From contig JABMLP010000007.1 of the NCBI GenBank assembly GCA_013176395.1, positions 620,001 through 684,000 on the forward strand: a DNA stretch of 64,000 bases, given 5' to 3'. This DNA is from Venturia oleaginea. Its lineage: Eukaryota > Ascomycota > Dothideomycetes > Venturiales > Venturiaceae. Of this stretch, positions 7,027-62,060 are shown piece after piece. The notes beneath the pieces are model-generated. The model ran no database searches. It was not told the origin of the DNA and worked only from the letters and a program-made list of their open reading frames with translations. The translations under genes and the position numbers were made by a program. Numbering within the stretch: position 1 is the stretch's first letter; every line of letters starts with the position of its first letter.

Positions 7027-8078
7027 ACGTATTCCACCACCGAGCCGGCCACTTTTCCTTGGCACGACCAACTCATATTACGCCTCTTCAATTTTATCGC
7101 TATCAACAATAGATTCCAAGTCTGTCGTGCTTCTATCTGATTCAGAAGACATCTCAATATCCTTTTTACACCTTCGCGCATTGTGCCCAGTCGCGCCGCA
7201 GTTCCCACAGCGCCGTTGAGTTGGTCGGGCTGTTTCTTGACCACTACTACTACGAGCATTCTTTGATCCCTGAGGCGCAACAGACGCCTCAGCAGCTACC
7301 CGCGCTGCTGCAGTCCCATACTCCATAGTACCATCTTGTTGGATCCGCTTTCTTTTACGCGATTTTCGCTTCATCATTACTGCCAATTGCTCTTCAATCT
7401 CGTGGTTTCGTGCAACAAGTAGAGCGTTCTGGTGTAGCATCAATTCAGCGCCTTTAACAAGCTGGGAAAAGCCTGCCTGGGCAATAACTGGTGACCGAGT
7501 GAAAGACTCGCTTACGAGCTTGGATTGGGATCCAAATTCATGAGTATTGCTTGGAGTCTTCGACTGCCACGGCGTTTCTAGGAGACGGGGTTCTGGCGGG
7601 GTACGTAGCCGTAGATTGAAGACTACCTTGAGCTCATCTGAGCGCGTTACGAATCTCTCAGCCCAGTTTTTGCCTACTGGCTCTCCACCGCGTATACCCA
7701 GTAGTTTATCCGCCATATCTGCCACCTCACACAGCCGGGGCGCAAATCCTCGCGAATTGAGATCGAGAATATATTGGATAAGCGTTTGCTCCTCAGTAAG
7801 GGTAAGCTTCCGACCGTTTGGTGGTTTTTCGAGGATAAATGGGACTCCTAGGGCGCGATCAGAGAGGTTCTGGTGTTTAACGTTAAAGGCGCGCGCAGCA
7901 GCCCATTGGCTTCGGAATTGGCCGGCTTGGAGGGCTTGGAGGGCAAGCTGAAGTCTCCCTTCGTGTTCAAGTAATAACGAGTTGTGTTGTTAAGACATAA
8001 TCAGATAATGGGGGAAGTGGTAGTCTTGGCATATTTTGGCGGGTTGGGTGGTGTGGCGGTTCGGGTAGTGGAATACGT
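7027..8078 (-). mobile_element. Internally deleted Fot1/pogo-like element (1052 bp)
   Basis: Ends are ACGTATTCC inwards on both sides; a TA target dinucleotide is kept on the right (8079-8080) and reads TG on the left. The left end nearly matches the ends of the 296-bp element at 12545, while the right end has diverged and carries CACCCAAC steps like the full-length relative at 21621. The interior encodes a transposase missing 260 codons compared with that relative. Non-autonomous. Confidence 0.85.
7078..7998 (-). pseudogene. Fot1/pogo-like transposase, DDE core deleted in frame, early stop
   Basis: DNA transposase remnant. From the ATG at 7998 to the stop at 7078 there are 307 codons in one frame. 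The intact relative (21689-23391) would have 567 codons once its 2-nt insertion is discounted, so exactly 260 codons (780 bp) are missing. The junction is at about 7595-7600, where the N-terminal helix-turn-helix part (ending NELK) is fused to RLRTPPEP. This removes the whole DDE catalytic core. The C-terminal zinc knuckle CGNCGATGHNARRC remains. Codon 3 is TAA where relatives have CAA, a CpA-to-TpA change of the kind made by repeat-induced point mutation. Otherwise the frame is open throughout. Confidence 0.85.
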
Positions 8079-11158: not shown

Positions 11159-12544
11159 GAAGGGGGGTAGGGTGGACACCTTTATCTTCGTCCAGAATCT
11201 GAATCTGAATATTGTCCTTATGAAAAAGACGTGCAGTTCGGCATTCGACGTCGAAATTCTAGGGCAAGGCCGCAACAAAGGCCGATTCGAGATCGTTTTA
11301 CCGCCCTCGGTTCCTCTAGTTCTATCTTAGTGACTCACCAGGTAATTCCAAATCCGACTCTAGACTAAACTCGAGATTTTAATTCCTTGCTTCGCACGGC
11401 TGTTCCTAATTCTGCGCGAATGTAGACAAGATATACGTACATATACTTACTTAGCGGCGATAATCCAAGATTGCACGTCTTTTTACGTTCACGATATGAT
11501 GAATTCGATCGTCCACGTTCTTTTTCCTTCCTCATTACCGCTGTGGAGATATGGAGGTATAAGGCTTGAAGCGTTCGTATTGCGTAGCAGATCGAGCCTA
11601 GAGCGCGACTAGAATTCTTTTAGGAAATAATATTTTTGGCTAGATAGCTTGGCCTCTGTTTCAGTACGAAGAGCGGTCGCTGTCAAGGTAAATGGACATC
11701 AAACGATACCTAGCTTCATCTAGAATTTAACGAGACTGAAACGCGTATCACACCAGTCTATCGAGCTCCTCATCAGCAATCAGTTCGTTCTGTCGTGCTG
11801 GATATAGGCCTCTTTCGCTCCGTAAAAGAAATGGTCGATATTTTCTCGTCGGCGTCCTTTGACATTGGGTGAAGGAGGTTCCGCTCAATAACCGCATTCG
11901 AAGACTGGGATCGCCTCCATCTGGTTAGGGTGGAATATCTCAACGGTATTGGATATCCGAATGTCCAAGTGTGCTTTCACCATCATTTCTTGATTCAACT
12001 GGTTTAACGAACTGCTTCTCCGACAAATCTTCTTCGTCAACACGTCGCCTTCCGTACACGGTGATGAAACTCAAGAAGCTCTTAGTGGGTGGCCAGTATC
12101 GAAAAAAGCCAGTTCCTCAGCTGTCTGGGGGAAAAGCCATTGTTGCCAGACTCCGGACAGCTAGCCGGAAGCGTTCGTATCGTGACGCGTACGGCGATGC
12201 TACCGCGTCTGTGCTAGATTCCAAATTCCATAAGCACAAGGATGACAAGTGAAGCAAAGAAACGAAAGGCAGCGGTGTTTTGGGACGAAGTGGGACCCTT
12301 GGACAGTGAGAGAGTTGAAAGAACGGAGCGGAATGCTGCCGCACTCCCTTGCCACATGAAGTTCCGAGGCCTGGGCTCAGAAGACTTCTGAACTCCAAAA
12401 TCCATCAAAGACTCATAAACCGGGTCACACGGTAGAACCTGACCCTCCCTGTCGCTAAGAAAAGATGGCACCTCCGCGCCGTTGCTCCAGGCAGGGTCGG
12501 ACACCTTAATGCAAAGGGTCGGCTTAATACAAATATTTCAGATA
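11159..12544. other. Spacer with no recognised gene
   Basis: Open frames of up to about 96 codons (11971-12252 plus; 12214-12504 minus) overlap each other and show no motif. No element ends were seen before the MITE at 12545. Confidence 0.4.
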
Positions 12545-12840
12545 ACGTATTCCACCACCGAGCCGGCCACTTTTCCTTGGCACAGCCCTTATCCTCTTCA
12601 ACACGCAATGTCTCAACAACGCAACGCGATAGCCGTTCATGAAGAAGGCAGAATTGATCTCGCTCTTCAGGCCTGTACCTCCGGCCAATTACAAAGCCTG
12701 GGCACAATGCGCGAAGGTGTAAAAAGGATATTGAGATATCTTCTGAATCAGATTCTATTGTTGATAGCGATAAAATTGAAGAGGCGTAACATGAGTTGGT
12801 CGTGCCAAGGAAAAGTGGCCGGCTCGGTGGTGGAATACGT
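12545..12840 (+). mobile_element. 296-bp MITE derived from the Fot1/pogo-like element
   Basis: Both ends carry the same inverted repeat of about 40 bp starting ACGTATTCCACCACCGAGCC, flanked by TA on each side (12543-12544 and 12841-12842). The interior is the first about 30 codons of the transposase (MSQQRNAIAVHEEGRIDLAL) fused to its last about 29 codons (GHNARRCKKDIE...). The MITE is therefore a direct deletion derivative of a Fot1-like element, with an intact start codon context but no transposase. Confidence 0.92.
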
Positions 12841-12847
12841 TATATGT

Positions 12848-12963
12848 GCTAGTGTCTATCTGGTGGAGCAAGGGCCTCGTCCGACCAAGCGACAACAACA
12901 ACATGGCGATCTCGCATATCGCACGACTTCTGAGCCCTCTGAGGCTCGTCTTGTATCTAGATT
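12848..12963 (+). repeat. A1 split direct repeat of the YR element (left end)
   Basis: 116 bp starting GCTAGTGTCTATCTGG and ending TATCTAGATT, matching A2 at 18535-18650 base for base by eye; an extra shared T precedes both. Confidence 0.9.
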
Positions 12964-13228
12964 GTTGTTGTAGGACTCGTCCTTCATCCCGATATTCTCC
13001 TTATCGTCCTACGAGTCTTTCCCGCCGCTGCGCGCGCCGCGCTTAGCCGTTCACCGCTTCTCGACAGACTTTTCAAGTACACCGCTGGCCTCGACGACGT
13101 CTTGGGCATCGTTATATTGCACCAGCATCAGAAATCCCTTCCAAAGAGCTCCTTGGCATCTCTAGGGCTCTGTACTTATTAACAGAGCTGACCTGCTAAC
13201 GATTTTAAATAGTTATACCGCTTTCTTT

Positions 13229-13662
13229 ATGCCTCCGAAGAAGGATATCACCGCGTCGGTTCCTATCAACTTATCCCTACCACCGGGTCACTCTACTCGC
13301 TCCTCTCGTACCCGATCCCCCTCTATTGTCTTCGAGACCCAGAGGTCATCTTCACGGTCGCGATCAACAATGCCCAGGCCGCTGAGGCTCGCGCCGTAGA
13401 GGCTCACAGGCTAAGGATGGACCGCGAAAAGGAGGAGCGCGACCTCCAGATGCAGGTCAAACGCGAAGAAGCGGCGGCGCGCCTTGCAAAAATTAGGGAG
13501 GGCTCTTTACTAGAACTACCGCATGGCACCAGTCGTCCGGGGGCGACTGAGCCGGATAACAGTACGGACTCACGTACGGCGCCTCCATCGGGATCCGCGA
13601 GCCTCATACGATTCGCGTACGCGGCGTTTCGAACAACTACTTCTCCGACGAGGCGACCGTAG
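13229..13662 (+). pseudogene. gag-like ORF of the YR element, one frameshift
   Basis: An ATG at 13229 opens a basic, Ser/Arg-rich N-terminus (MPPKKDITASV...) that stops at 13397. The protein continues in the next frame as an Ala/Glu/Arg-rich stretch (AQAAEARAVEAHRLRMDREK) predicted to form a coiled coil, ending at 13662. The change of frame corresponds to one lost base near 13330-13370. It overlaps the start of pol by about 120 bp. Identity as gag rests on position and composition only. Confidence 0.6.
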
Positions 13663-15088
13663 CCGAAGCTACGGGCTACGTTGCGAAGGAGCTGGCCGCC
13701 GGCCGATTGGCTATCTCTACAGACCCGGGCCTGTTTATCGCTCCTCTTGGGATGGTCCCAAAACAAGACGGAACCTTACGCCGGATCCACGACCTCTCTT
13801 GGCCGCCCCAAACTTCAGTCAACGACGCCATTCCACGCGTGTTTGGCAAGCTACAGTACACCAGAGTCGACAGAATTGTTCAGCACGTCCTTCGTACAGG
13901 CCGGGGCTGTCTTCTGATGAAACGCGACATTGCGCACGCTTTTCGCAACATCCCTGTGGATCTCATTTCGTCCCGGTATCTTGGGTTTTGCCTCAACGGC
14001 GTCAATTATCAAGAACTCTGCCTCCCTTTCGGTCTCAGGACTGCGCCATTTATCTTCAATCTCTTTGCGAAAGTCTCCATTGGGCTCTCGACGAGCAGGC
14101 CGGCACGCGCAGTATCCCTACCGCGATCGAGCACTACCTTGATGATTTTATGTTTGTGTGTACGTCTCAAGAAATTTCGGACCGCGTTTCGGAACTCTGG
14201 ATCAAGACCACCGATCGACTTGGGATTCCTCGCAAGGATGCCAAAGACGTGGTCGGCACGGCCGTCGAGATATTAGGTCTTCTGGTTGATACGGTACGCT
14301 TGGAACTGCGTCTCTCCGACGAGAAGAGAGATTCTTTGATCCAGGCTATCCGTGATCACCTCTCCGAGACAAGGCCGCGGCTCCGGGATACGAAGTCCCT
14401 CGCCGGGCGGCTCAGTTGGGCCAGTGCCGTCATCCGCCTTGGCCGGGTTTACACTCGATCGATCTGGGACTACCTGAGCGGAGCATACGGAGAAGTCAAT
14501 CGGCACTTTCGCCGAGCCCTGACTAGCGGTGTACGAGACGACCTTCTCTGGTGGCTCCATGCGCTCGAGCTAACCAACGGGGTCTACTTCTTCGATTATC
14601 GAAAGCGCCGTTGTTTCCACCTTTTCACTGATGCCTCCGGACAACAAAGCCTCGGCGGCTTCTTTTTCGAGTCCTCTGAGACCGATGTCTCTTGGGGGGA
14701 TTACACCAATAGTATCGCAATCGAGCATGCTTTTATTGCTGAACCGTCCAATCGTTCGGCGTTTATCAACCCTAAGGAGATGGAGGCTGTTGCCGTCGCA
14801 TTCCTCCGTTGGGGACCGTCTCTCTGGGCACATAATCGGGTCGTTATCCACTGTGACAACTCTACGGCCGTGGCCGGGTTGACGAAGGAGGCTGTTCGTG
14901 GTGAGAGCAACACCCATCTCCGCACTATTGTTACTCAGGCCGCTGCCTGCGATATTGTTATCGAAGCCCGCTGGCTTCCATCTACGGCTAACGGCCTGGC
15001 CGATGCCCTCTCTCGAGTCCAGTTTGATCGTATCGCCTGGCTCTGCCCCCAATGGGGCTCACCGCTTTCGATCTCACAGTTCCGCTGA
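13545..15088 (+). pseudogene. pol: reverse transcriptase and RNase H of the YR element, one frameshift
   Basis: RNA-directed DNA polymerase with RNase H. The first part is read in the frame of 13707 (PGLFIAPLGMVPKQDGTLRR, then KRDIAHAFRNIPV, LPFGLRTAPFIFN). Near 14075-14090 the frame moves back by one base and continues with HWALDEQAG and the catalytic YLDDFMF box. RNase H follows: LFTDAS, NPKEMEAVAV, IHCDNS and NGLADALSR, so all four acidic positions are present. The protein stops at 15088, immediately before the tandem array. The frame change fits a single lost base, making this copy inactive unless it is rescued by frameshifting. Confidence 0.88.
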
Positions 15089-16893
15089 ACTATTGTTGAA
15101 CCGTCCGATCGTTCGGCCTTTATTAACCCTAAAGAGATGGAGGCCGTTGCCGTTGCCGTTGCATTCCTCCGTTGGGGACCATCTCTATAGGCATATCCGG
15201 CCGACGCCCTCTCTCGAGTCTAGTTTTCGATCGTATCGTCTAGCTGCCTCCGATGGGGCTCACCTTTTTCGATCTCAGTTCCGCTGAACTATTGGTGAAC
15301 CGTCCGATCGTTCGGCGTTTATCAACCCTAAAGAGATGGAGGCCGTTGCCGTTGCCGTTGCATTCCTCCGTTGGGGACCATCTCTATAGGTACATCCGGC
15401 CGACGCCCTCTCTCGAGTCTAGTTTCGATCTTATCGTCTAGCTCTGCCTCCGATGAGGCTCACCGCTTTCGATCTTACAGTTCCGTTGAACTATTGGTGA
15501 ACCGTCCGATCGTTCGGCGTTTATCAACCCTAAAGAGATGGAGGCCGTTGCCGTTGCCGTTGCATTCCTCCGTTGGGGACCATCTCTATAGGTACATCTG
15601 GCCGACGCCCTCGCGAGTCTAGTTTCGATCGTATCGTCTAGCTCTGCCTCCGATGGGGCTCACCGCTTTCGATCTTATAGTTCCGTTGAACTATTGGTGA
15701 ACCGTCCGATCGTTCGGCGTTTATCAACCCTAAAGAGATGGAGGCCGTTGCCGTTGCCGTTGCATTCCTCCGTTGGGGACCATCTCTATAGGTACATCCG
15801 GCCGACGCCCTCTCTCGAGTCTAGTTTCGATCGTATCGTCTAGCTCTGCCTCCGATGGGGCTCACCGTTTTCGATCTCACAGTTCCGCTGAACTATTGGT
15901 GAACCGTCCGATCGTTCGGCGTTTATCAACCCTAAAGAGATGGAGGCCGTTGCCGTTGCCGTTGCATTCCTCCGTTGGGGACCATCTCTATAGGTACATC
16001 TGGCCGACGCCCTCGCGAGTCTAGTTTCGATCGTATCGTCTAGCTCTGCCTCCGATGGGGCTCACCGTTTTCGATCTCACAGTTCCGCTGAACTATTGGT
16101 GAACCGTCCGATCGTTCGGCGTTTATCAACCCTAAAGAGATGGAGGCCGTTGCCGTTGCCGTTGCATTCCTCCGTTGGGGACCATCTCTATAGGTACATC
16201 TGGCCGACGCCCTCGCGAGTCTAGTTTCGATCGTATCGTCTAGCTCTGCCTCCGATGGGGCTCACCGTTTTCGATCTCACAGTTCCGCTGAACTATTGGT
16301 GAATTGTCCGATCGTTCGGCGTTTATCAACCCTAAAGAGATGGAGGCCGTTGCCGTTGCCGTTGCATTCCTCCGTTGGGGACCATCTCTATAGGTACATC
16401 CGGCCGACGCCCTCTCTCGAGTCTAGTTTCGATCGTATCGTCTAGCTCTGCCTCCGATGGGGCTCACCGTTTTCGATCTCACAGTTCCGCTGAACTATTG
16501 GTGAACCGTCCGATCGTTCGGCGTTTATCAACCCTAAAGAGATGGAGGGCGTTGCCGTTGCCGTTGCATTCCTCCGTTGGGGACCATCTCTATAGGTACA
16601 TCTGGCCGACGCTCTCGCGAGTCTAGTTTCGATCGTATCGTCTGGCTCTGCCTCCGATGGGGCTCACCGCTTTCGATCTTACAGTTCCGTTGAACTATTG
16701 TTGAGCCGTCCGATCGTTCGGCGTTTATCAACCCTAAGAGATGGAGGCCGTTGCCGTTGCCGTTGCATTCCTCCGTTGGGGACCATCTCTATAGGTACAT
16801 CTGGCCGACGCCCTCGCGAGTCTAGTTTCGATCGTATCGTCTGGCTCTGCCTCCGATGGGGCTCTCCGCTATCGTCCTTACAGTTCCGTTGAA
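15089..16893 (+). repeat. Nine-copy tandem array of a chimeric RNase H fragment (199-202 bp unit)
   Basis: Units begin (GAACCGTCC or variant) at 15098, 15297, 15499, 15699, 15901, 16101, 16301, 16503 and 16703, so spacing is 199-202 bp. Each unit joins the RNase H stretch matching 14741-14831 (FINPKEMEAVAV...) to the one matching 14994-15090 (GLADALSR...SISQFR), skipping about 160 bp that encode the CDNS motif. Inside each unit GCCGTT is repeated three times where the parent has fewer. The array ends at about 16893, where single-copy sequence leads to the recombinase gene. Confidence 0.93.
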
Positions 16894-17051
16894 TTCTTGC
16901 TATCCCGGGGATTGCAACTTTGGGCTTGGCGCGCTGTTCGTGGCAGCCGTTCTTTGCAGGCTCATCGGCTTAAGCGCCATGCTACTCTGCTATCGCCGAC
17001 GTTCGGCAGATACCCTGGTCGGACTCCGGTACTCGTACAAAGCTTGCTAAC

Positions 17052-18140
17052 GTGCTTCGTCCAGCACCTAGCCTCGAGTATACTTCCTACGATAGCGAGC
17101 TCCTCCCTACAGTTCATAGGTTCTTCCTCCGTACCCTTCGCGAGCGAAACCTTGGCCTCTCTGATGAGTATATTACCCTCTTATGGTACGGCTTGGCCCA
17201 GAACACGCGCAACACGTACGGCGCGGGTATCAAGAGCTGGGAGAGGTTCTGTACGCTGGAGGGCTGTGTAGACTATCCCGCAGAACCCCTCAATCTCGGC
17301 GAATGGATGGCAAGGCGTGTCATTACTGGAGGAGCGAAAGGCATCATTTCCGGCGCTACAGCGGCCAGCTACCTCTCCGCAGTACGTTCAAAGCATATCG
17401 ACCTGGGATACCCTATCAGCGCGTTCGCTGATCCGATGCTCCTACGCGCAAGACAGGGGGCTCTCAACCTCAGGCCTCCGAAGCGCAAGAATAGGCTCCC
17501 TATTACTGTACGCATCCTTGAGGGACTGACGGCTGTGGAACCGACCACCGGAGCCGACCTCAATCTCGACACTCTCTTCAAGGTGGCCTATGCTGGTTTC
17601 TTCCGCCTTGGCGAGCTGGCTTACACTAGAAGAGATAGGGAGCACCCGCTGTTCTCCTATACTCACGTCTTACGGAGCGATATCGCCTTCCATCGTCATA
17701 CGCCTAGCCATCAGCCTTACGGGGTCTCTATTTTCCTGAAGCGTAGCAAGACCGATTACGCTAATCAGGGCGTTCCCATCTCCATCGCCGCAACGGGAAA
17801 ACCTACCTGTGCAGTAGCCGCCCTGGTAAGACTTTTCAGGCACGATCCGAAGCCGCTTTCGGCGCCTCTCTTCGACATCGGCAAAGGGCATTGTTCGGCC
17901 GCTGCTGTACACATGCAACTACGCCGACGCCTCCTCGCTACTGGTATTATCTCCTCGCTGGACGACAAGTCCTACACAGGCCATTCCTTCCGCAGGGGTG
18001 CTGCTACGGACGCAGCTGCGAAGGGAGTGCCTGAGCTCGAGCTTAAGGCAGCGGGTCGATGGTCCTCCGAAGCTTTCCTCCGTTACATATCCCGTTCGTT
18101 CGAACAGCAGCTTGCAATCAGTCGCCTGTTCCTGATATAA
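17052..18140 (+). CDS. Tyrosine recombinase of the YR retrotransposon
   Basis: Site-specific recombinase that would integrate the circular cDNA. The frame is open upstream of 17052 as well, so the true start is uncertain; 362 codons are shown. The N-terminal SAM-like part has TRNTYGAGIKSWERFC. The catalytic domain has AGFFRLGELAY (first Arg), GHSFRRGAAT (His-x-x-Arg), AGRW (His/Trp position) and RYISRS (nucleophilic Tyr). All expected catalytic positions are present and there is no stop or frameshift. The protein might instead be made as part of a longer pol; a frame on the preceding side (from 16897) encodes LQLWAWRAVRGSRSLQAHRL, which could be the lost linker. Confidence 0.9.
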   Translation: MLRPAPSLEYTSYDSELLPTVHRFFLRTLRERNLGLSDEYITLLWYGLAQNTRNTYGAGIKSWERFCTLEGCVDYPAEPLNLGEWMARRVITGGAKGIISGATAASYLSAVRSKHIDLGYPISAFADPMLLRARQGALNLRPPKRKNRLPITVRILEGLTAVEPTTGADLNLDTLFKVAYAGFFRLGELAYTRRDREHPLFSYTHVLRSDIAFHRHTPSHQPYGVSIFLKRSKTDYANQGVPISIAATGKPTCAVAALVRLFRHDPKPLSAPLFDIGKGHCSAAAVHMQLRRRLLATGIISSLDDKSYTGHSFRRGAATDAAAKGVPELELKAAGRWSSEAFLRYISRSFEQQLAISRLFLI

Positions 18141-18296
18141 CACCGTTGTGTTCACCCGATCGCCAAAAGCTATACTCTGCTTCGCTACACCGCTGTGTTT
18201 CTCGCCTCTACCCTGGACCGAGTATGTCGTACAGACTCGCCTCCTATCCCACCTCGTTTCCTTCTTGTTTGTCTGGGCCGCAGGCGCTTCGCTTCT

Positions 18297-18534
18297 GGGC
18301 AGTAGGGCACCTCATTTGCCTTCAATCGAGAAGCAATTGAGCCGTGGGCATGCCATCCTGAGACCTACCCCGTGGCTGAAGCCCCGTGTGGCTGAGGAAG
18401 CCTGTATGGCTCAGGGCTCAATGGCTTGCTCGCTCACAATGAAAATTCACGTGCCCTGGCCTGCGTCCGGCCAATCAACAGATAAAACGTGCCAGATGAC
18501 CGTGATCCGAAGGCGTGGCGAGATGGAGATAGAT
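18297..18534 (+). repeat. B1 split direct repeat of the YR element
   Basis: 238 bp starting GGGCAGTAGGGCACC and ending GGAGATAGAT, matching B2 at 18691-18928 with a constant offset of 394. It abuts A2 directly. Confidence 0.9.
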
Positions 18535-18650
18535 GCTAGTGTCTATCTGGTGGAGCAAGGGCCTCGTCCGACCAAGCGACAACAACAACATGGCGATCTC
18601 GCATATCGCACGACTTCTGAGCCCTCTGAGGCTCGTCTTGTATCTAGATT
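18535..18650 (+). repeat. A2 split direct repeat of the YR element
   Basis: Internal partner of A1. A 40-bp unique spacer (18651-18690) separates it from B2. Confidence 0.9.
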
Positions 18651-18690
18651 CCCACCCGCCTACACCCTGTAGTCAACGTCTTATACGTGC

Positions 18691-18928
18691 GGGCAGTAGG
18701 GCACCTCATTTGCCTTCAATCGAGAAGCAATTGAGCCGTGGGCATGCCATCCTGAGACCTACCCCGTGGCTGAAGCCCCGTGTGGCTGAGGAAGCCTGTA
18801 TGGCTCAGGGCTCAATGGCTTGCTCGCTCACAATGAAAATTCACGTGCCCTGGCCTGCGTCCGGCCAATCAACAGATAAAACGTGCCAGATGACCGTGAT
18901 CCGAAGGCGTGGCGAGATGGAGATAGAT
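18691..18928 (+). repeat. B2 split direct repeat of the YR element (right end)
   Basis: Right terminus of the element, ending GGAGATAGAT before flanking TATAGGAAAG. It matches B1 by eye. Confidence 0.9.
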
Positions 18929-19030
18929 TATAGGAAAGGACAGGCTCTTGCCTTGGTACACTCCGCCGTAGGAACCACCGCCTAGTCGAAGGTCTAGCTG
19001 ATATTTGTCTTGCACAACGAGAGGCTTCAT
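18929..19030 (-). pseudogene. 5' fragment of a protein kinase gene cut by the YR element
   Basis: Reading leftwards from the ATG at 19030, the frame gives MKPLVVQDKYQLDLRL followed by GGGSYGGVYQGK, which has the layout of a kinase beta-1 strand and glycine-rich loop and resembles casein kinase I N-termini. The reading then runs into the YR element at 18928. No kinase continuation was found left of 12545, so the rest of the gene is missing here. Only about 33 codons support this, so family assignment is tentative. Confidence 0.5.
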
Positions 19031-19228
19031 AGCGAGAAAGAGGGGGAGCATATGTCGACAATCGCAAATGCGTGCTCTTTGTAGGATACGGCAAGCTAGC
19101 AATCGTGGTGTGCAGGAAAACGGAGAGAACAGGAATTGAAGGCGCGTGCTGCTACAGGCGCTAATCTACGAGGGTGACGCGCTAAATATCGGCGGGGGAC
19201 CTCCCAGCTAATACCTGGTGGATTGTAA

Positions 19229-21045
19229 CTCTACCTCTTCTTCAACGCTGACCTGGTAGAGAGAAAGATCAGCCGGCACCAAGGCGCAATTGCGTACGTG
19301 GATGACTACTCTGTTTGGGTCACCGGGCCAAATGCTGAGGAAAATACTCGGGTGCTTCAAGAGACAGTGATACCAAAAGCGGAGCAGTGGGAACGTCGTA
19401 GTGGAGCTACATTTGAGCCCAAAAAGACAGCCTTCATCCACTTCACACCAAGCGCGGAAAGACTGTCAACGACGCCAATTCAAATTGGAGGCTGCTCGGT
19501 GGTGCCAGGCTCCTCCGTCAAGCTTCTAGGCATTATTCTCGACCAGAAATTGAAGTTCCACCTACAGGCTGCCAGAGCCGCCACAAAGGGACACGATGCC
19601 GCGATCCGGCTGAAGAGACTGAGTGGCCTCCTTACCAAGCAGGCACGGCAGCTGTTTGAGGCAACAGTGGCGTCAGTTGTCGACTACGCATCATCAGTCT
19701 GGACAACAGCGCTGAACGCTAAGGATACACGCTTGCTTGAACGACACCAAAGATGGGGGGCACAAGCCATTGTTGGATGCTTCCGAACCACAGCATTGGA
19801 TATTGCGCAGTCTGAGGCATCAATTGGGACCTTCCACCAACGACAGACAGGGAAATGGATGGGCCTGTGGGTCAAGCTAAATACATTACCGGAGCGCCAC
19901 CCATTGAGGTTCAGTATTAAGGCAGTGCATCAATCATTTAAGCTTCGCTCGTCACTGGGCCTATTAGCAGACAGGTTTGCAGGAATCAATATGCCCCAGA
20001 TTGAGATAGTCACACCATTTGCAAAAGCACCGTGGATCGAAGGGCCTTGCGTGATTATTGAAGAGCGCGACGAAGCTACAAAACCCACAGCAACACAAGA
20101 TGAAGACGAAGTCCACTGCTACACTGACGGCTCAGGTAGAAATGGCATCCTGGGGACGGGTATGGTGTACATTCTACCAGATGAGAACCGGACTACACTC
20201 GAGCAATACGCAACAACAGGATTGCTTGCAAACGGCAATATATACGCGACAGAGCTGAAGGTAATTAGTACTGCTCTAAGCCAACTGGCAGTGTGGACCA
20301 TGGTTCCGCTAGAAGGAAAACTCACCATCTTCTCGGACAATCAGAGTGCGCTAAAGAGTATCCGCAAGCCAAGACAGCAGTCAGGCCAGCATATCATCAA
20401 GGACATCTTGTCAGCCACGCAGCGATTACATCAAAGGATATCACCGTGGTTCTTCGATGGATCCCGGCACACTCTAGCATCAAGGGCAACGAAGCAGCAG
20501 ACAAAATGGCCAAAAGAAGTACCAAAGCAGGGAGCGCAGTGCCGTCAGAGATACGACTACGCTCAGCACTGATTAGGCAAACAAAGAAGAGCTGTCAACC
20601 AAGCGGCAAACTACTGCGAGGAGGGAGATTTACCAAATCCATTGATGCTGCTATCCCTGGAAAACACACGCGCACCATCTACAATCAGCTATCTAAAACA
20701 GAGGCTCAAATACTAGCTCAATTGCGGACGTCACACTGTCGGCTGAATAAGTACCTGAACCGAATTGGAGCGGCGGAATCACCATTGTGCGAAGAATGCG
20801 GAGTTGTGGAAAGCGTGCAGCATTTCCTACTCGATTGCAAACGATGGAGCGAGCATCGACGGCTCTTGCGAGAAGCAACCGAGCCAAGGAGTGACGTCTC
20901 CTATCTACTAGGAGGCCGCTCAACACTCACAAACAGAAGAGGAGAGATGATCGATGGTCCAAAATGGACGCCAGATGTAGCAGCAGTACGAGCGACAATT
21001 GCGTTCGTAGATGCTACCAAGCGATTCAGCCGAGAGACGGAGTAG
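19229..21045 (+). pseudogene. 5'-truncated Tad-type LINE ORF2: RT C-terminus and RNase H
   Basis: Non-LTR retrotransposon polymerase fragment. It opens at LYLFFNADLVERK and the RT active-site box AYVDDYSVWV, so the N-terminal endonuclease and most of RT are absent, as usual for LINE insertions that stopped early. RNase H follows (HCYTDGSGRNG, YATELKV, IFSDNQSALKS). Near 20430-20450 the frame shifts by one base, after which VLRWIPAHSSIKGNEAADKMA completes RNase H. A terminal CCHC-like knuckle is CEECGVVESVQHFLLDC. The stop is at 21045. The frameshift makes it non-functional. Confidence 0.88.
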
Positions 21046-21620: not shown

Positions 21621-23471
21621 ACGTATTCGGTCACCCAACCCGTCAGATCACCCAACCGGTCAAAATTTCTTGGCACGACCATCTTATATTACGACTCTTC
21701 AATTTCATCGCTATTAACAATACATTCTAAGTCCGTCGTACTGCTATCTGATTCAGAAGATATCTCGATATCTTTTTTACAAGTTCGCGCATTATGCCCA
21801 GTTGCGCCGCAGTTCCCACAGCGCCGTTGAGTTGGTCGGGCTGTTTCTTGATCACCACTACCACGAGCCTTCTTCGATCCCTGAGGCACTACAGACGCCT
21901 CTGCAGCTACCTGCGCTGCTGCAGTCCCATACTCTATAGTTCCACCTTGATGGATCCACTTTCTTTTGCGCGATTTTCGCTTCGTCATTACTGCCAATTG
22001 CTTTTCAAGCTCGCGGTTGCGCGCAACAAGTAGAGCGTTTTGGTGCAGCATCAATTCAGCGCCCTTGACAAGCTGGGAAAAGCCTGCCTGGGCAATAAAA
22101 CTGGTGACCGAGTAAAAGACTCGCTTACGAGCTTGGATTGGGATCCAAATTCATGAGTATTGCTTGGAGTCTTTGCCTGCCACGGCGTTTCTGGGAGACG
22201 GGGTTCTGGCGGGGTACGTAGCCGTACTTCAAGGCGATCCAACACCACCTGCGCGTCGATAGGGACCAGCCCTACTGCCTCAAAGGCCTTTTGACAGTTC
22301 TCTTTTGTAAACACGTCGAAAAACGCGTCTTTGAAAGTAGGGAGAAAGCCTTCCTTGTTGATATGGTAGACGCGTCGGCGTGCCAAGACCCGGACGCGTT
22401 GGGAGTACTTGCGCTTCAACGGCGAGAAGCAGACCACATCAAGGGGCTGGAGTATATGCGACGAGTGCGATGGCATGCAAAGGGTTATAATCTTATTTTC
22501 GAGGCAGTAGTCCTTGAAATCCTGGCTGAGATGGCTCTCATGGCCGTCCAAAATAAGCAGCCTATACACCCCTACCTGCCGCGCCTTTGTATGCGCGTCA
22601 AAGTGCTTCAACCACTCAAGACCCAGCGCGATGTTTGTCCAGCCGTTCTCAGGGACTGAAAGCTTCCAATTGCGCGGTATATCTGCCTCCTCATACCACG
22701 TAGAGATGTGAACTCGTCCTTTGTAGATAATGAATGGCGTGGTCGCATACCCAGCTGCGCAAACGCTCTGAATAACCGTAACCCATTCGCGACCGCCCGG
22801 CTGAATGAGTTCAGGCCTTGTACGTCTCTCGGAGGCTGTAACGACCTTCATTGACCCAATAATACCCATCTGGAAGCCAATCTCGTCAAAGTTATGCGTA
22901 TCCTCGTCGTGGATGCCGTACTTTGCCTTGGTGTCTGCAACGAGCTTGAACCACGTGCCAATAATCTCTGGATCTTCCTGTAGTATCCTCTGCCTATCCT
23001 TGGCTCGATTGAAGGCTGTCTTGAGCTCATTTGAGCGCTTTACGAACCTCTCAGCCCACTTTTTGCCTACTGGCTCTCCACCGCGTATACCTAACAGTTT
23101 ATCCGCCATATCTGCCACCTCACACAGCCGGGGCGCAAATCCTCGCGAATTGAGGTCGAGGATATATCGGACAAGCGTTTGCTCTTCGGTAAGGGTAAGT
23201 TTCCGACCGTTTGGTGGTCTTTCGAGGATAAATGGAACTCCTCTGACGCGATCGGAGAGGGTTTGTTGTTTAACGTTGAAGGCGCTCGCAGCAGCCCGTT
23301 GGCTTCGGAGTTGGCCGGTATTCAAAGCTTGGATTGGAAGATGAATTCTCCCTTCGTGCTGGAGTAGTAACTCATTACGTTGTTGAGACATAGTAGAATA
23401 AGAAGAGTAGTTGGGGTCTTGGCAAATTTTGACCGGTTGGGTGATCTGACGGATTGGGTGATCGAATACGT
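21621..23471 (-). mobile_element. Full-length Fot1/pogo-like DNA transposon (1851 bp)
   Basis: Terminal inverted repeats of about 50 bp (ACGTATTCGGTCACCCAACC on the left and its near-complement on the right, with ACCGGTCAAAATTT shared internally) are flanked by TA at 21619-21620 and 23472-23473. Fot1/pogo elements insert at TA. One transposase gene fills the interior on the minus strand. Confidence 0.93.
21689..23391 (-). pseudogene. Fot1/pogo-like transposase with a 2-nt frameshift
   Basis: DDE transposase: N-terminal Psq-type and Tc5/CENP-B-type DNA-binding helices (RAAASAFNVKQQTLSDRV, then RFVKRS), catalytic core with FDEIGFQMG, LLILDGHESHL and LQPLDVVCFSPLKRKY, and a C-terminal zinc knuckle CGNCGATGHNARTC. 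ATG at 23391, stop at 21689: 1703 nt. After removing two extra A bases at about 22096-22098 (ATAAAACTGG, against ATAACTGG in the copy at 7027) it is 567 codons. The insertion moves the frame in the middle of the C-terminal third and separates the DDE core from the zinc knuckle. The DDE part is otherwise complete and without stops. Confidence 0.92.
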
Positions 23472-24646
23472 TACTGAATATCTTTTATATCTAATACCCC
23501 AGATAGATACCACCTCCCCTAGCCCTTAAACGTTTGCAGCCTCAATCTGACGCGAGGAGATATTTCTTGCGTCATACATAGTCTCAGCAGGGTACGTAAA
23601 CGCAGTATCTAGAGGGACACTAGCTGAGAAGTCCCGTTTGGGTCAACTTGAGCTTCGAGAGACATTCGGATTTTTTTCGCTTAAGCAGCCGTTGCAGATT
23701 TTCTCATCTCATTTGAGAAATCTGACTTTTGGAGGTCAAAATATGGAAATCCTACTGTCCAACGCAATGACCCTGAAATCAAAAGCTTGCTGCTAGTTTC
23801 ATTTCACCGTCGGCTCTAAGGGAACATGTCTTCCTTCACAATGAGCAAGTGTTTGCAGAATGACCTCGCTTCATAGTGTCGAAGGGGAAAAAACTGGAAG
23901 GGTTGAGAGCCACTAGCGTCTGTTGTCCGGTTCAAGTGAGAGAGACAACTTACTCACAACATTGGTACAAAAACGTCGAAAGACGTACTCATTCAAAATG
24001 CTAGACGTAATCAGCAAGTCTTACCATATCGTTGCGCCATGACCGTAAGACTCATACCTAGACAGGCGCTCGACTTCGCAGCTCACATGGCCTTCGCCGA
24101 ATAAAGGGTACTGTTGTTCAGACTGTGAGGAAGAGTCTGTTTGTCTTCATGATGTTTTTCAACCGAACATCGACCCCAATCTTCCAATTGGGCACCGTGT
24201 TCATGTATTGGCCAGGCAGAAGGTTCTTCGAGTAGGAGCCTTGGGCAAAGTTTGTTGCCTGCATCCTCCAAGAACAAAATTGAAAATCGATGGAGAGCTC
24301 GGTGATGAACTTGGCAAGAAAATAAGACGTGTCGTATAGATCGGCGTTCCTTGTGATGGCCGCAACAAGGACGACAATGACCGTTTTCTTTATTTGTTGA
24401 GAGACTTTGACAATGTTCACGGTATTAGAGATGTTTGATAGAGGTGGAAAGAAATGTGAAAAACATGACTCGATAGGAGGCGTTGTAGATAGGTATGGCG
24501 ATTTTATCGTTGGCCGTTATTGTTTGTTTCTTCGAGTACGATCATAAATGAGTCGAGTTGTGAAAGGTCATAAGGAGCATTTTCGTAAGGTTTGTGTCGC
24601 GTCCCTGGTGGTGCCTGAAATGCTGAAGGAACCAGATGGGCGTTTC
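23472..24646. other. Spacer with an uncertain small ORF
   Basis: No element ends were recognised. On the minus strand 24118-24420 encodes 100 codons with a hydrophobic stretch near the start (TVIVVLVAAI), and a downstream minus-strand frame at 24018-24130 also reads cleanly. They may be exons of a small membrane or secreted protein, but no splice model could be fixed. Confidence 0.3.
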
Positions 24647-33943: not shown

Positions 33944-34555
<612 letters not shown>

Positions 34556-55152: not shown

Positions 55153-55431
55153 CCTGAATTTCGCCGTGGATGTTGCTCTTTCCGGGCAGCCACTAGTGTT
55201 TAACTTTCATAGGTGTCTGTGGCATTGAATAGATTTGATATTACGTTTTTGAATGACGGCCCAAGAGCTTCTGTTAGATGCCAGATTCTTTGGAGGAATG
55301 AAGATGTTGGAGAGAGAGAGCGAAGAGGAGCACAGGGTTCCTCAAATCTGACTGCGCAGGGCGCTCGGACCCACCACATCCCATCTCAATTTCCATGTAT
55401 ACACCAACTTGTCGCTCAATTTACCACCACC

Positions 55432-56693
55432 ATGGCGCCTAGAACACCCAAAAGAAAGACTGCAAGGCGAGAATATGACACCACGAAGAGAATGCGATTT
55501 TTCCAGGCCTGGGATTGCAAGAATGAGGCCGACGGCGTCGGTACAATCGCATACCTCCCTGAAATCAATATACCAACTTCTACCGCACGTAGTTGGCTTA
55601 AACTACGAGAACTTATTGGTGATGCAGCATTCAGATCACAGAGAAAGAGGAGTTGCATCATAGGGCGGCCTACCAAAGTATTTGCTTCAGATCTTACCCG
55701 CCTTACGAACCAAGATGACCCCATACACGAAAAAGGCTGGCAGGAACAAGCCAATTCCTGCCCCGGCAAGCCTTCCGCAAGACATTACAGCGTCACGTAT
55801 ACAATGCAGGGGCTAGGCGATTCAAGAAGCGTTATCAGAAGCAGATATCCCAGGCAAATCGACCAAAGAGGGTTGAAGACGGTAAAGAACACGAGAAAAA
55901 GACCATACTAGGCTTCTGGAGTTGGATTTGGTTCACAGATGAAGCCCATTTTCAGTCAAAAGAACTCGCCAATGCACCTGAATATGAGCTAGGCTTTCCA
56001 GGGCAAGAGAGAGGTGTCAATGAGGAGCTAGAAGGCGGTTTGGATGTTACTATTCACATCGCCGGCGGCATCTCATACAACAAGAAAGGAAACCTCATAT
56101 TCTACAAGGATCCGGCTGAGCCATCAGAGAAGGTCCGTAGGCAAGTCAAGCAGCCTAAACAACTCAAATACGAGCTGGATTCAGTGTACCAAGCCCGGCT
56201 GAAGGTCTGGCAAGACCTTAAGGCAAAGGAGGACGAAACACCAAAAGGAAACTGCATGACACAGGTTTTCTACGCCAAAAAGATACTGCCGCAACACATT
56301 GAAGCTATTCAGGCCTTGGAGAAGCGTCACCAGCGCAAATACTGGCTTCAAGAGGATGGTGATCCTTCTCACGGAATCAAGTCACCTAACAGTGACCCTG
56401 CAGTCATAAAAAGAGAAGCAGACCTTCTATTACTTATTCACCCTCCTCAATCATGTGATATCAATCCCATTGAGTCTTGTTGGAACATCATTAAGTCCAG
56501 ATCAGCTGGCAGGAGGTGGTCGACGGTGGCTTATTTCAAGGCTGAAATCCAGGCAGAATGGGACAAGATAACGCTCACAATGATACGGAAAAGGATCAGA
56601 GAGATGCCAGAGAGATGTAAGATGATTCAGCAAACCAAAGATCCATTGCAAGTCAAACGTGTGGTAAATAGCATAATACATTCAAGTTCATAA
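55432..56693 (+). pseudogene. Tc1/mariner-type transposase with 1-nt frameshift
   Basis: DDE transposase of a DNA transposon. ATG at 55432 opens MAPRTPKRKTARREYDTTKR and a helix-turn-helix N-terminus. Near 55755-55770 the frame shifts back by one base (QANS in the first frame, RQAFRKTLQRHV in the second); total length 1262 nt is one short of 421 codons. The catalytic part has WFTDEAHF (first Asp), LQEDGDPSHG (second Asp) and CDINPIESCWN (Glu). No terminal inverted repeats were recognised around it, so element ends are not given. The protein is broken here and the element cannot mobilise itself. Confidence 0.82.
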
Positions 56694-58107: not shown

Positions 58108-60468
58108 TTCGGTGCAAAAGCAGGGTTGATCAATCGATATCTCTACTCGTTCTCCTTCTGCGCCCACTGCGTTTCTGTTCTTCCCTTGTCCAAATATGTT
58201 ACTGTCTTCGCAAGTAACATATAATATCATTGATAACCACGAGGGGTGAAGAGCACGGAATCGCCAACAATAGCCCCGATCAGGCTTTCCGCCGCTAAAA
58301 GAATGATCCACGCTCGTTCCTCATAACGCTGTCGTGGATCGCGCGACACGAGAATTTCGATTAATTAAGCCATACTTTAAGAATTGATTGGTAGCATCGG
58401 AGATAATGGTTTTCTTTTAGAGACGATGAGACAAATCATCGGAACTCCGTAGTCGTTGAGGGCTGAAACGGATGAAGCCCAAGCGAAAGTTGTGAGTACG
58501 GGGAGGGGTATGATAGCAATTTGAGTGGGCAAAATTGTGCATGCAGCCCTGTACGTTGAAGTACAGCGACATTGTTTGTAGTCGATTGTCAGTTCTCTTT
58601 GTGCTTCTGTTAGGTCGCGGGGTGTGGGCGTTATGTATATTTTTTGTTCATCAGAATGCTGATATGGGGATTCTTCTTGGTTAAAGGCGGCTGTTATGCT
58701 AGCTCCGCTATTTGCGGTTACGCCACCTTTGCTTTTATTCCCCCTGTATGCGTTGCTATTGGCTTGATCCTATCGGTACGGCACGAACTGCTGCAGTTTC
58801 TTTCATTTAAGAAAGAGATGGTGTGAAGAGCAAGCCTTGGGAACGATCTGCCAAGCGAACTGCGCATGCTGCGTTCGACTTCGCTTCGTAGATCATGTGT
58901 TGGGTATTTTGAGAACCGGGAAGACATTGAGGTAGGAATGCAGTGTCGGTTGGATTAGAGCACAATCAGGTTCGGTAGTGGCTGGTAGTATCTGTGATGA
59001 TTTCTTTTGTTTTCAGGCGATGATCAACATTGCCATTACCAACTTCCCAAGAAGATGGTTATCGAGAAGTTGATATCCTGGCGGTTCAAGGGATGGGAGA
59101 AGCAGCGGGTTTGGACTAGGAAAGAACTTTGGTGAAAGAGATGTTAGGAGGGCCACAAACGCCTGAGGAATATGGGTTTTCCCTGTGATTCGTATTCTTC
59201 TAGTGAGGTAATGTGCGGATATATGTTTGCGAGAACGGTGGTAGGTTAAGAGCTTGGTTTACTTACGGCTAGAGATGGTCATGGGAATGGTAGAGGATGA
59301 TGAGGCTTCTTACTTCGCCAGACTATGAAAAGGCGAGACTTCTGGTGAGTGTACGAGCATCGAATGGAGAAGAGACTCGAAAGTGGAATTGGGCGGGCCC
59401 GGAAGAGAATATCGTTCTTGAAAAGAAGACTGGCGTGATCAACATGGATGACTTTCGCTGCCTCTGTTGATTCCAAATTGGGAACGCTTTCCTTCCCCAC
59501 TTGACGGAAGTAATAAGCAATCAAGAAAGATCGCTATCATCACGCCTCGCGATCTTTAGGGCACCGAGAGTGCCCTTTTCGCCGTTGATCGAGGGTTTCT
59601 AACAGAGTAAGGGTTTCCTGACTCATATGATCAATGCTGATGCTGCAACACAGAAAAGGGGAGAAACCTACCATCGAGTCAATGGCCGTGCTTGTGCGTG
59701 GGGATCGTACGAATCTTGGATAAGGCATTTTAAAGCACATATGAGCTTGGGATTCTTTGACGGAGAAGTCTTCTAAATGGGAAAGGCTGGACCCTGAGTC
59801 GGACGAAGTAGAGAAGGTAAGCAGCTATAAAAGGGCTATGAGTCTATCTTTCAGTAGGCCACAGAACACACAGTGGATGGTTACATGTGGTCTGCGTCCG
59901 GCGCCAGTTCACTGCTCTGAAAAAGACATTATGGACCTCTTGTTACGAAGTTTGGATCTTCTGTCAATGGATTAAAACGCCGTTGCTAGCGCGCAAAGAA
60001 TTTAAAGAAAGGGGAGATAGAGGTTGTCATCACTTCTCTACTATCTTCAACTAAATTTTTATTATAGTTTGACCACTTCCCTCAGGCTACTCCGTGTAGC
60101 CACGGCATGGAATGAATTTCGCTTTTTAGCAAGCCGTTCAGGCACGCCTAGATCTCCTATGTTTACAGACACCTTGGAATTCGCGGGTGGTAGCATTTGC
60201 TTACATCACGCTTTCACTCGAAAGATCGTCTTAAATACAATCGAGGTTCTCTCGAACTCTAGCTCGGTTTCGGGAAACGGACGTTTTGATCTTTGATGCG
60301 GCTGAAGGCGGTTTCAACCACAAGTAGTTCCGGACTGCATTTGTTGCAAATTTGGGTATAAATAGATTGTGATGAAAACCGCTCCACGCCGTTGAGTCGC
60401 CCAATATCATCCAGATAAAATCATACGCATCACCATCGTAACCGCAAGGGCGCATTACCCTAGAAAAG
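58108..60468. other. 2.4-kb spacer, no gene recognised
   Basis: Short open frames only (for example 59279-59524 minus) without motifs. The last part lies just before the LINE ORF1 and may include its 5' UTR. Confidence 0.4.
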
Positions 60469-62060
60469 ATGTCGAACAACCCGCAGCTGCCGACCGGATC
60501 CATTAGAAGAGCAGAAGGACCTCAAGCCGGACAACCCTTGAGACCAGCAAAGGACATCCTAATTGAAGTCATAGGGCACTTGAACGCCTCCAAAATGCCC
60601 CATCCTCGGTTCCTTGCCTCCCTCGTCCGCGATGCCTTGGACGCACTTGCACCCCCTGTGGCCCGGGAAAACTTTGCGGCTGGACCAAAATGCTTCTCGG
60701 TTGGACCACAACTGGACCGGATTGAGCGAATGATCAAGGACCTCCATGGAAAGGGGCCATCGACGGACCGCCGCCTGTACTCCCATGTCGCGGCGGAGCC
60801 ACCAAACTCCAAGATAGTCAGAGTCAACCTCAACGAAAATGTTGAACTCACAGAAGAAGAAAGGAGAGATACCAACAAGGTAATGGAAGCCTGCAGGAAG
60901 GATATGCCATCCGCGGTTGGAGTCCACGTCCTCAAGAGCGGAGCGGTGGATGTCCATTTAGGACCACTGCGGACAAGGACAGGTGCGCCCTCCAAGGAAC
61001 CGGGGCGGCGACCACACAAGTACGAAGAGACTACCTCCTAGAGGTGATGGGAGTACACCATGGAGTAGGAGTGGCCCACGGAAGAAACGCGGACAACACC
61101 CAAGTTCTGAGCGACATTATCATGGGGACTCAGAGACTATGCCTAGGGCTGAAGATTCACTCAGTTGCATGGAAGGACAAAGCCAAGAGATACAAAAGAA
61201 GGGACGGGCCGGCCACGGTCTTCGAACGGGCAGCGCTCTTGCTAGGGTTCAGTACCACAGAGGATAGGGACATGGTAATCCAGAAGGGGATTGTTGTAAG
61301 AGGGGAGATCTATCAGGCCAGGCTGTACGATCATACAGCCTCGATCAAGCAGTGTTACAAGTGCCAAGTCTGAGGACATGTCTCGGAGCATTGCACCTCA
61401 GCGGTCAAGTGCGGTAGATGCATGGGTGACCACGACACCAGGATATGCCTAGGGGCATTGAATGTCCACCGGTGTACAAACTGCAAAGGCGCAAACCCCC
61501 CGTGGGCTAGGAGACAGTGCAAGACTTTTGAAAGGTATTTTGGGCAAGTGCAAGCAAAGAGGGCGGCCTTACAGCAGCAATCCTGGATGATTAAGGACCA
61601 CGCCATTCAGGCAGCACCCGAGTACGAGAAGCAGTTTCCACATGGATCGAACAAGCGTAGGGCCCCTAACGGTCCCGGTGGACCAGTTGGGAGACCGCCC
61701 GGATCCACAAACAGGCCCAAGGTAGTGCCGAGACTCCAAGGGCAGGGGCACATCTTCGAGAAGGCTGGGTTCAGCACACCAACTACCAGAGGAAACCGAC
61801 TCTCTATGGCACTCGAGTCCGCCTATGGAACGCCCATAGGAGATAACCCAGACACCCCGACAAGGGCGGAAGCGACCCGGCCAGGGAGCGGGGGCAGCGG
61901 AAGAGGAATTGATACTACCGGCAGCCCCCCGAGGTTCGGGGCTCTGCCGGCCATAGTGAGCAGCGGCACGCTACCGCCATTCAGTATGGAGCAGACAATG
62001 GATAGGGAATTCACGGGGGTGTCAAATGAACTCATTTCATTCTATCCTCATTTGTACTAG
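60469..62060 (+). pseudogene. LINE ORF1 (gag-like, zinc knuckles), frameshift and stop
   Basis: ATG at 60469. The N-terminal half (ILIEVIGHLNASKMPHPRF, NLNENVELTEEERRD) changes frame at about 60960 by one lost base, continuing TTADKDRCALQGTGAATTQ and RRDYLLEVMGV. Three C-C-H-C-type knuckles follow: CYKCQV-stop-GHVSEHC, CGRCMGDHDTRIC and CTNCKGANPPWARRQC. The TGA at 61371-61373 replaces a probable Trp within the first knuckle. Total 1592 nt is one less than 531 codons. RNA-binding chaperone role inferred from the knuckles. Non-functional. Confidence 0.85.

What the first reader, a model, noticed from the sequence alone, without database searches (positions are those of the whole stretch)
12848..18928. 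Tyrosine-recombinase retrotransposon in an ascomycete
The element combines RT and RNase H with a tyrosine recombinase and no integrase or endonuclease. To my recollection, fungal surveys put DIRS and Ngaro elements in Mucoromycota, Blastocladiomycota and Basidiomycota, with ascomycetes nearly lacking them (a single remnant reported). Here is a near-complete copy with identical-looking terminal repeats, surrounded by clear Pezizomycotina genes. It could mark horizontal arrival or an overlooked ascomycete lineage.
Basis: partly seen in the sequence, partly recalled or inferred. Interest (0 to 1): 0.92.

Follow-up and report, generated by a model that had tools for sequence, protein, structure and literature searches.

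The report
Young Ngaro retrotransposon in Venturia fungus
This is a recently multiplied jumping gene of a known kind (Ngaro), which copies itself through RNA and inserts with a Cre-like enzyme; finding dozens of near-identical copies in a scab fungus is unusual but not the first ascomycete case, and their ends reveal a Cre/loxP-style joining site that can be tested.

Summary
Confirmed. Window 12847-18927 is a near-complete Ngaro-superfamily retrotransposon: split direct repeats A1...B1-A2-(40 nt)-B2 (A 117 bp, B 237 bp, pairs identical), reverse transcriptase/RNase H and a Cre-like tyrosine recombinase; no DDE integrase found. This copy has a one-base deletion in RT; 17 of 20 fetched copies keep the 509-aa RT-RH frame. 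The host is a Venturia, probably V. oleaginea.

"Ascomycetes nearly lack them" is outdated: a complete Ngaro family is published for Zymoseptoria tritici, and five RT-RH relatives carry Talaromyces, Aspergillus or Penicillium names. Horizontal versus vertical origin stays open.

Found here: 62 long right ends, 36 solo A-s-B units, 20 copies differing by 0.12% on average; insertion without gain or loss of target bases at A/T-rich sites; and at the B|A junction a loxP-like site (7-bp inverted arms, 8-bp spacer). A second, distant Ngaro-like family in the same genome has the same design with other letters (8-bp arms, 9-bp spacer). Permuted and dimer copies are absent (0 of 59, 0 of 62), so copies seem laid down in fixed order and later trimmed. 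A new member of a known kind with an unusually readable integration record.

The parts
12847..12963 (+). A1 repeat, left end (starts TGCTAGTG)
   Evidence: identical to A2; left end shared by the copies while flanks differ
13229..13662 (+). short overlapping frames upstream of RT (gag position); no long intact gag frame
   Evidence: ORF list; role inferred from position only
13560..15088 (+). RT and RNase H coding region; frame broken in this copy by a 1-nt deletion (window frames 13560-14276 and 13514-15088)
   Evidence: Pfam RVT_1; 509-aa open frame in 17 of 20 fetched copies; homologs
14996..16893 (+). ~200-bp tandem array (9.5 units) built from RNase H-region sequence; unit number differs between copies
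16974..18140 (+). tyrosine recombinase frame, 388 aa; R211, K259, H337, R340, W363, Y371
18297..18533 (+). B1 repeat
18527..18548 (+). B1|A2 junction: AGATAGA-TGCTAGTG-TCTATCT, proposed YR core site
   Evidence: exact in 40 places genome-wide, the same number as attached A-s-B units; 14 of 100000 shuffles as good
18534..18650 (+). A2 repeat
18651..18690 (+). 40-nt spacer s between A2 and B2
   Evidence: the A|s junction occurs in 76 places genome-wide
18691..18927 (+). B2 repeat, right end (ends GAGATAGA)

Best explanation
A recently active, high-copy Ngaro-superfamily retrotransposon of Venturia. SHOWN by sequence: A1-int-B1-A2-s-B2 order; RT, RNase H and a Cre-like YR with its catalytic residues; near-identical copies; insertion without target duplication or loss at loosely A/T-rich sites; a loxP-like inverted-arm site at the B|A junction in two distant families of this genome; copies with 0, 1 or 2 A-s-B units and solo A-s-B units. 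INFERRED: RNA is copied to DNA using B1A2 to restore both ends (the published Ngaro/PAT model, details recalled), giving a DNA circle whose closing junction re-creates the B|A site; the YR recombines that site with an A/T-rich pseudo-site so that the left end keeps the circle's spacer (TGCTAGTG) and the right end keeps the target's own bases; inserted copies are later trimmed at A1/A2 (leaving solo A-s-B) or B1/B2 (leaving A-int-B), by homologous recombination or by the YR.
For: Repeats and domains. Copies: 94 YR matches including a second family; 51 full length of this family. Census: 59 A1|int ends, 62 int|B ends (25 with no, 34 with one, 3 with two A-s-B units), 76 A-s units = 40 attached + 36 solo. 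Age: 20 copies, 33 variable of 3693 columns, mean pairwise difference 0.12%; C>T plus G>A are 18 of 53 differences, so no RIP-like excess. Empty site: L019's right flank holds the unoccupied form of the site filled in L009 and L023, joined without gain or loss. A full copy (C14) and a solo (L058) sit 2 bp apart in a shared 44-nt sequence and both rebuild the same target. Target: A/T at -4 in 72 and at -3 in 70 of 79 unique sites, T at +1 in 41, A/T at +8 to +10 in 55-58; mean run of identity between target and B|A junction 1.25 nt against 0.64 at control offsets. Core: family 1 7-bp arms/8-bp spacer, family 2 8-bp arms/9-bp spacer; 14 and 6 of 100000 shuffles with the junction at the left arm's edge and spacer 6-10, 45 and 15 of 20000 with the junction anywhere in a spacer of 4-12; family 2 junction seen intact at C61. 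Trimming in place: L027 and L028 have identical flanks (1074 and 1010 bp compared) but differ by A-s-B and array length.
Against: No circle, RNA or protein was observed. The 20 fully read copies are the 20 best YR scores of 51, so biased to intact ones. No ATG precedes residue 112 in the YR frame, so its expression is unexplained. The target's right half is weaker than the left (A/T 70-73% against 89-91%), and its peak (+8 to +10) does not mirror the left peak exactly about an 8-bp spacer. The family-1 arms were noticed by eye before they were tested; family 2 was the independent check. If a circle with two equal core sites were free to use either, half of the copies should read A-s-B-A-int-B: 0 of 59 left ends do, and 0 of 62 right ends are followed by a second A-int. 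Array and unit counts rest on an assembly that I could not check with reads.
Confidence: 0.85

Rival explanations
1. The solo A-s-B and the A-int-B copies arose only by host homologous recombination between A1/A2 and B1/B2, like solo LTRs; the YR acts only at insertion.
For: Solo AB repeats in Cafeteria Ngaro were read this way (PMC8547959, section 11 read). No permuted or dimer forms (0 of 59, 0 of 62), as expected if excised circles do not reinsert. L027/L028 shows change in place.
Against: The short, distant A repeats (117 bp, mostly 4.5-7 kb apart) gave 36 solos while the longer, adjacent B repeats (237 bp) gave 25 A-int-B copies, some of them duplicates; homologous recombination alone would favour the reverse, though time and selection could change that.
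Confidence: 0.5
2. The YR itself cuts at the core site and ends, excising A-int-B or A-s-B circles, some of which reinsert, so A-s-B behaves as a 394-bp non-autonomous element.
For: Exact core sites number 40, as do attached A-s-B units, on the same contigs; solos share the target preference (34 of 35 with A/T at -4); 11 of 36 solos are identical to the window's unit; three copies have two units.
Against: Free recombination should also give A-s-B-A-int-B and dimers: 0 of 59 and 0 of 62. Solos that descend from full copies would share the target preference anyway.
Confidence: 0.35
3. It belongs to PAT-like (or another YR group) rather than Ngaro: PAT-like elements also have split direct repeats.
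For: Same repeat order (stated in PMC4157794 and PMC6681497, passages).
Against: No methyltransferase family was hit in the scanned frames, and MT marks PAT in PMC4157794. RT-RH relatives include an Aspergillus (Neosartorya) fischeri protein, from the species whose element was called Ngaro; that it is the same element was not checked.
Confidence: 0.07
4. Contamination or a chimeric contig brought a foreign element next to ascomycete genes.
For: None found.
Against: Full-length YR copies lie on 24 contigs with different flanks; the host gene Vps41 is Venturia-like.
Confidence: 0.01

Closest known systems
Ngaro superfamily (Goodwin and Poulter, recalled; fungal survey PMC3783388; Cafeteria PMC8547959)
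   Same: A1-ORFs-B1A2B2 repeats, RT, RNase H and YR, no methyltransferase or DDE integrase found; solo AB repeats also reported in Cafeteria
   Different: 40-nt spacer between A2 and B2; variable ~200-bp array between RNase H and YR; copies with 0-2 A-s-B units; the B|A inverted-arm site was not mentioned in the passages that I read
Ngaro (RYN) family of Zymoseptoria tritici (PMC4502367, passages)
   Same: Same superfamily, same fungal class (Dothideomycetes, recalled), described as complete
Cre recombinase and loxP (P1 phage)
   Same: Best fold match of the YR model (1ma7, E 1.7e-10, TM 0.69 by target length) and profile match; inverted arms around an 8-bp spacer (loxP layout recalled)
   Different: Arms of 7 bp instead of 13 (loxP figure recalled); insertion into loose A/T-rich sites; part of a retrotransposon
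Second Ngaro-like family in the same genome (L029, L131, L132)
   Same: RT-RH 41% and YR about 33% identical; same end design with inverted arms at the B|A junction; two A-s-B-like solos of 416 bp by end positions
   Different: 4.72-kb copies without A/B repeats in the 3 read whole, 98.8-99.0% identical, so older; placed elsewhere in the RT tree on a long branch

Membership tests
Ngaro | Split direct repeats in order A1-ORFs-B1-A2-B2 | tested here: met
   40 nt lie between A2 and B2; 25 of 62 right ends in the genome lack A2-B2
Ngaro | RT and RNase H | tested here: met
   RVT_1; first five RT-RH relatives cover 93-99% of the intact frame; broken in the window copy
Ngaro | Tyrosine recombinase with R...HxxR...Y | tested here: met
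Ngaro | No methyltransferase, no DDE integrase | tested here: met
   no such Pfam family at E<=0.01 in 7 window frames, 4 of them in the element; a planned Pfam scan of the intact RT-RH frame failed and was not repeated
Ngaro | Insertion without target site duplication | tested here: met
   empty site; in 79 unique flank pairs end matches are 0 nt (50), 1 (21), 2 (6) or 3 (2)
Ngaro | RT/YR phylogeny inside Ngaro reference clades | not tested
   no reference DIRS, PAT, Ngaro or VIPER sequences were available; the tree holds database relatives only
PAT-like | Methyltransferase domain with split direct repeats | tested here: not met
   no methyltransferase hit
DIRS-like | Inverted terminal repeats and internal complementary region | tested here: not met
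   terminal repeats are direct; the only inverted pair of 20 bp or more found in 11500-20500 lies outside the element

The most novel reading that the evidence does not exclude
Ngaro-type retrotransposons integrate by a general Cre/loxP-like rule: the closed circle makes a site with inverted arms around an 8-9 bp spacer, the element's left end always carries the spacer plus one arm and its right end the other arm, and the target is any A/T-rich pseudo-site. Two lineages that share only 33-41% protein identity keep the design with unrelated letters, so the arms could be used to find exact ends and to predict insertion sites of YR retrotransposons anywhere.
Probability: 0.5. Interest if true: 0.7.

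Novelty: new member of a known kind. Interest (0 to 1): 0.52.

Why it matters
YR retrotransposons are among the least understood retroelements: circular DNA and conservative integration are modelled more than shown (my assessment). A young family with 79 usable insertion sites, an empty site, paired trimmed and untrimmed copies, and a candidate recombination site in two lineages makes the integration step directly testable. In the open-access text that I could search, Zymoseptoria is the one ascomycete for which I saw a complete Ngaro family described; this adds Venturia, with two coexisting lineages, so the 'lost in Ascomycota' picture needs revision.

Tried and rejected
Programmed frameshift in RT: rejected, the 1-nt deletion is in the window copy and in none of the 19 other copies read. 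LTR or integrase element: no such domain. Contamination: rejected. RIP as the cause of differences: C>T plus G>A are 18 of 53 counted differences. Free recombination of two-core circles: not supported (0 permuted of 59, 0 dimers of 62). Relatives with DNA in other collections: YR and RT alignments in viral contigs and the RT alignment in genome contigs gave 38, 25 and 33 pattern matches, none confirmed. Family-2 long repeats: none in 3 copies read whole. Papers on a loxP-like Ngaro site: searches (11 of 11 listed; 15 of 21 listed; 12 of 314 listed) showed none that I recognised, open-access PMC only; the primary papers of Goodwin and Poulter and of Poulter and Butler were not read. Venturia with Ngaro: of 68 papers in one search, 20 were listed; those with both words were an apple and a wasp genome; PMC6686934 has no 'Ngaro' or 'DIRS' in its main text.
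Full report
OBSERVATION. The window copy runs from 12847 to 18927. A1 equals A2 (117 bp) and B1 equals B2 (237 bp) exactly, in the order A1-int-B1-A2-40 nt-B2. RT is hit by Pfam RVT_1. The recombinase frame (16974-18140, 388 aa) has no Pfam hit of its own, but 38 of the 54 members of its alignment match Phage_integrase; the predicted fold (mean pLDDT 88.4) matches Cre-loxP structures best, the first 33 rows all being Cre or its variants, and the alignment profile hits Cre at 1.3e-11. The alignment gives K259, H337 and R340 as invariant and R211, W363 and Y371 as nearly so; reading these as the catalytic set rests on general knowledge of Cre.

STATE OF THE COPY. The RT frame of the window copy is broken by a 1-nt deletion. 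Of 20 copies fetched (the 20 best YR scores of 51 full-length matches, so a biased sample), 17 have the open 509-aa RT-RH frame, the exceptions being L011 (the window copy), L020 and L025; 20 of 20 have the 388-aa YR frame. A tandem array of about 200 bp per unit, made of pieces of the RNase H region, separates RT-RH and YR and varies in unit number between copies.

HOST. The window's Vps41 gene is 91% identical to Venturia nashicola. The assembly has 46,083,126 bases; a review gives 46.08 Mb for V. oleaginea (PMC9868462, passages). I infer V. oleaginea; the genus is well supported, the species is not proved.

COPY CENSUS. The genome has 94 YR matches, a second family included; 51 span residues 1-387 or 1-388 at 98-100%. 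Patterns with up to 2 mismatches give 76 A|s, 59 A1|int and 62 int|B junctions. Of the 62 right ends, 25 carry no A-s-B unit, 34 one and 3 two; 40 A-s-B units are attached and 36 stand alone. Of the 36 solos, 35 have both ends recognisable and 11 are identical to the window's unit. The 22-bp B|A core is exact in 40 places. Outside the array, 20 copies show 33 variable of 3693 columns and differ by 0.12% on average (0.46% at most); C>T plus G>A are 18 of 53 differences, so there is no RIP-like excess.

INSERTION. L009 and L023 are inserted at the same base of a repeated sequence whose unoccupied form lies in L019's right flank...GCCGCTTAA|TCACGCAGC..., with no base gained or lost (the left 45 nt are identical, the right part 81% alike). 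A full copy on C14 and the solo L058 are inserted 2 bp apart in a shared sequence of 44 nt and both rebuild the same target. Of 88 flank pairs, 9 were dropped before the count (2 short, 7 duplicates); in the 79 left, A/T is found at -4 in 72, at -3 in 70, T at +1 in 41, and A/T at +8, +9, +10 in 58, 58 and 55. Matches between the end of the left flank and the start of the right flank are 0 nt (50 sites), 1 (21), 2 (6) or 3 (2), so there is no duplication of fixed length.

CORE SITE. At B1|A2 the sequence is AGATAGA|TGCTAGTG|TCTATCT: 7-bp perfect inverted arms around 8 bp, with the element's start at the left arm's edge. Of 100000 shuffles 14 do as well under that condition (spacer 6-10); with the junction anywhere in a spacer of 4-12 bp it is 45 of 20000 and, in an earlier run, 7 of 5000. 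I saw the arms before testing them. The second family (RT-RH 41% identical over 458 columns; YR about 33%) is the independent check: its 4.72-kb copies have no A/B repeats (3 copies), 14 starts and 11 ends are found in the genome, and its B|A junction occurs once: GCACGAAA|TGGATGGTT|TTTCGTGC, 8-bp arms around 9 bp, 6 of 100000 and 15 of 20000 shuffles. Pairs of its start and end patterns 416 bp apart on C9 and C26 suggest solo units there too (by coordinates only).

IN-PLACE CHANGE. L027 and L028 lie in opposite orientation on one contig with identical flanks over the 1074 and 1010 bp compared, yet one has no A-s-B unit and 9 array repeats and the other has A-s-B and 5. Of five groups with shared flanks, L009/L023 and L027/L028 differ in A-s-B number; L026/C49, C28/C40/C42 and the C34 group do not. 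For L009/L023 the right flanks are only 96.5% identical over the first 403 bp while the elements are 99.8% identical, so two independent insertions or conversion are possible.

WHAT SPEAKS AGAINST THE SIMPLE CIRCLE MODEL. No s-unit stands directly before an A1-int (0 of 59), and no right end is followed by a second A1-int (0 of 62). A circle with two equal sites, or free reinsertion of small circles, should give such forms. I therefore favour laying down in a fixed order followed by trimming, and leave open whether homologous recombination or the YR trims.

RELATIVES AND ORIGIN. Among the 120 RT-RH relatives listed of 535, five carry fungal names, all Eurotiales: Talaromyces stipitatus, Aspergillus fischeri, Penicillium subrubescens (two) and P. 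atrosanguineum; one carries a Chloroflexi MAG name. Among the 120 YR relatives listed of 420, one carries an organism name, Collybiopsis confluens, a mushroom by recall. In a quick tree (SH-aLRT only) of 67 rows, the query and 66 of the 116 rows with enough coverage, the query pairs with P0121 (100), the five Eurotiales rows lie in a 14-row clade (99), and the second family is elsewhere on a long branch. This shows an old split of lineages, not the direction of any transfer.

LITERATURE. PMC3783388 (abstract and passages): one truncated Ngaro without terminal repeats in Neosartorya fischeri. PMC4502367 (passages): one complete Ngaro family, 23 kb in all, in Zymoseptoria tritici. PMC9281073 (passages): Ngaro counts of 0, 126, 104 and 98 in four Sporothrix genomes by repeat masking. 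PMC7181583 (passages): one Ngaro hit in Z. tritici, none in Peltaster fructicola. PMC3266345 (passages): no well-conserved DIRS1-like copies in 75 ascomycetes. PMC8547959 (section 11 read): Ngaro with solo AB repeats in Cafeteria. PMC4157794, PMC6681497 and PMC9210276 (passages): definitions. PMC6686934 (passages): Venturia TE content, neither term.

VERDICT. The value lies in a young, multi-copy natural record of YR retrotransposon integration and a candidate core site shared in design by two lineages.

Noticed in passing
window 15030-17064: The YR frame has no ATG before residue 112. A GT at 15030 (GTATCG) and a CAG at 17062-17064, with GCTAAC at 17046-17051, would splice RNase H to YR in phase and remove the whole array; if real, the array's free variation would be explained (sequence; phase worked out by hand; no RNA evidence).
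   Followed up: partly
window 12539-12846: A 308-bp stretch with 45-bp terminal inverted repeats (98%), looking like a MITE; the Ngaro element begins right at its right arm's end. A similar arm sequence follows the family-2 copy in L029.
   Followed up: partly
window 19229-21045: RT- and RNase H-like frames of a probably broken LINE-like element next to the Ngaro copy.
   Followed up: no
window 7078-7989 and 22051-23484, minus strand: Two frames resembling pogo/Fot1-type DNA transposases (judged by eye).
   Followed up: no
window 55213-56693 and 60442-62060: A Tc1/mariner-like transposase in two frames, and a frame with zinc-knuckle motifs like a LINE ORF1 (by eye).
   Followed up: no
G000 contig C34, about 1366000-1497000: Four copies spaced about 32 kb apart, three sharing left flanks and three sharing right flanks: probably a tandem segmental duplication carrying the element.
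   Followed up: partly
L142 (G000:C61:1074260-1074560): Two family-2 copies meet tail to tail; one keeps a B|A junction followed by about 62 nt of A that jumps into the other copy's inverted end.
   Followed up: partly
window 34417-34543: A run of about 43 TGT triplets.
   Followed up: no
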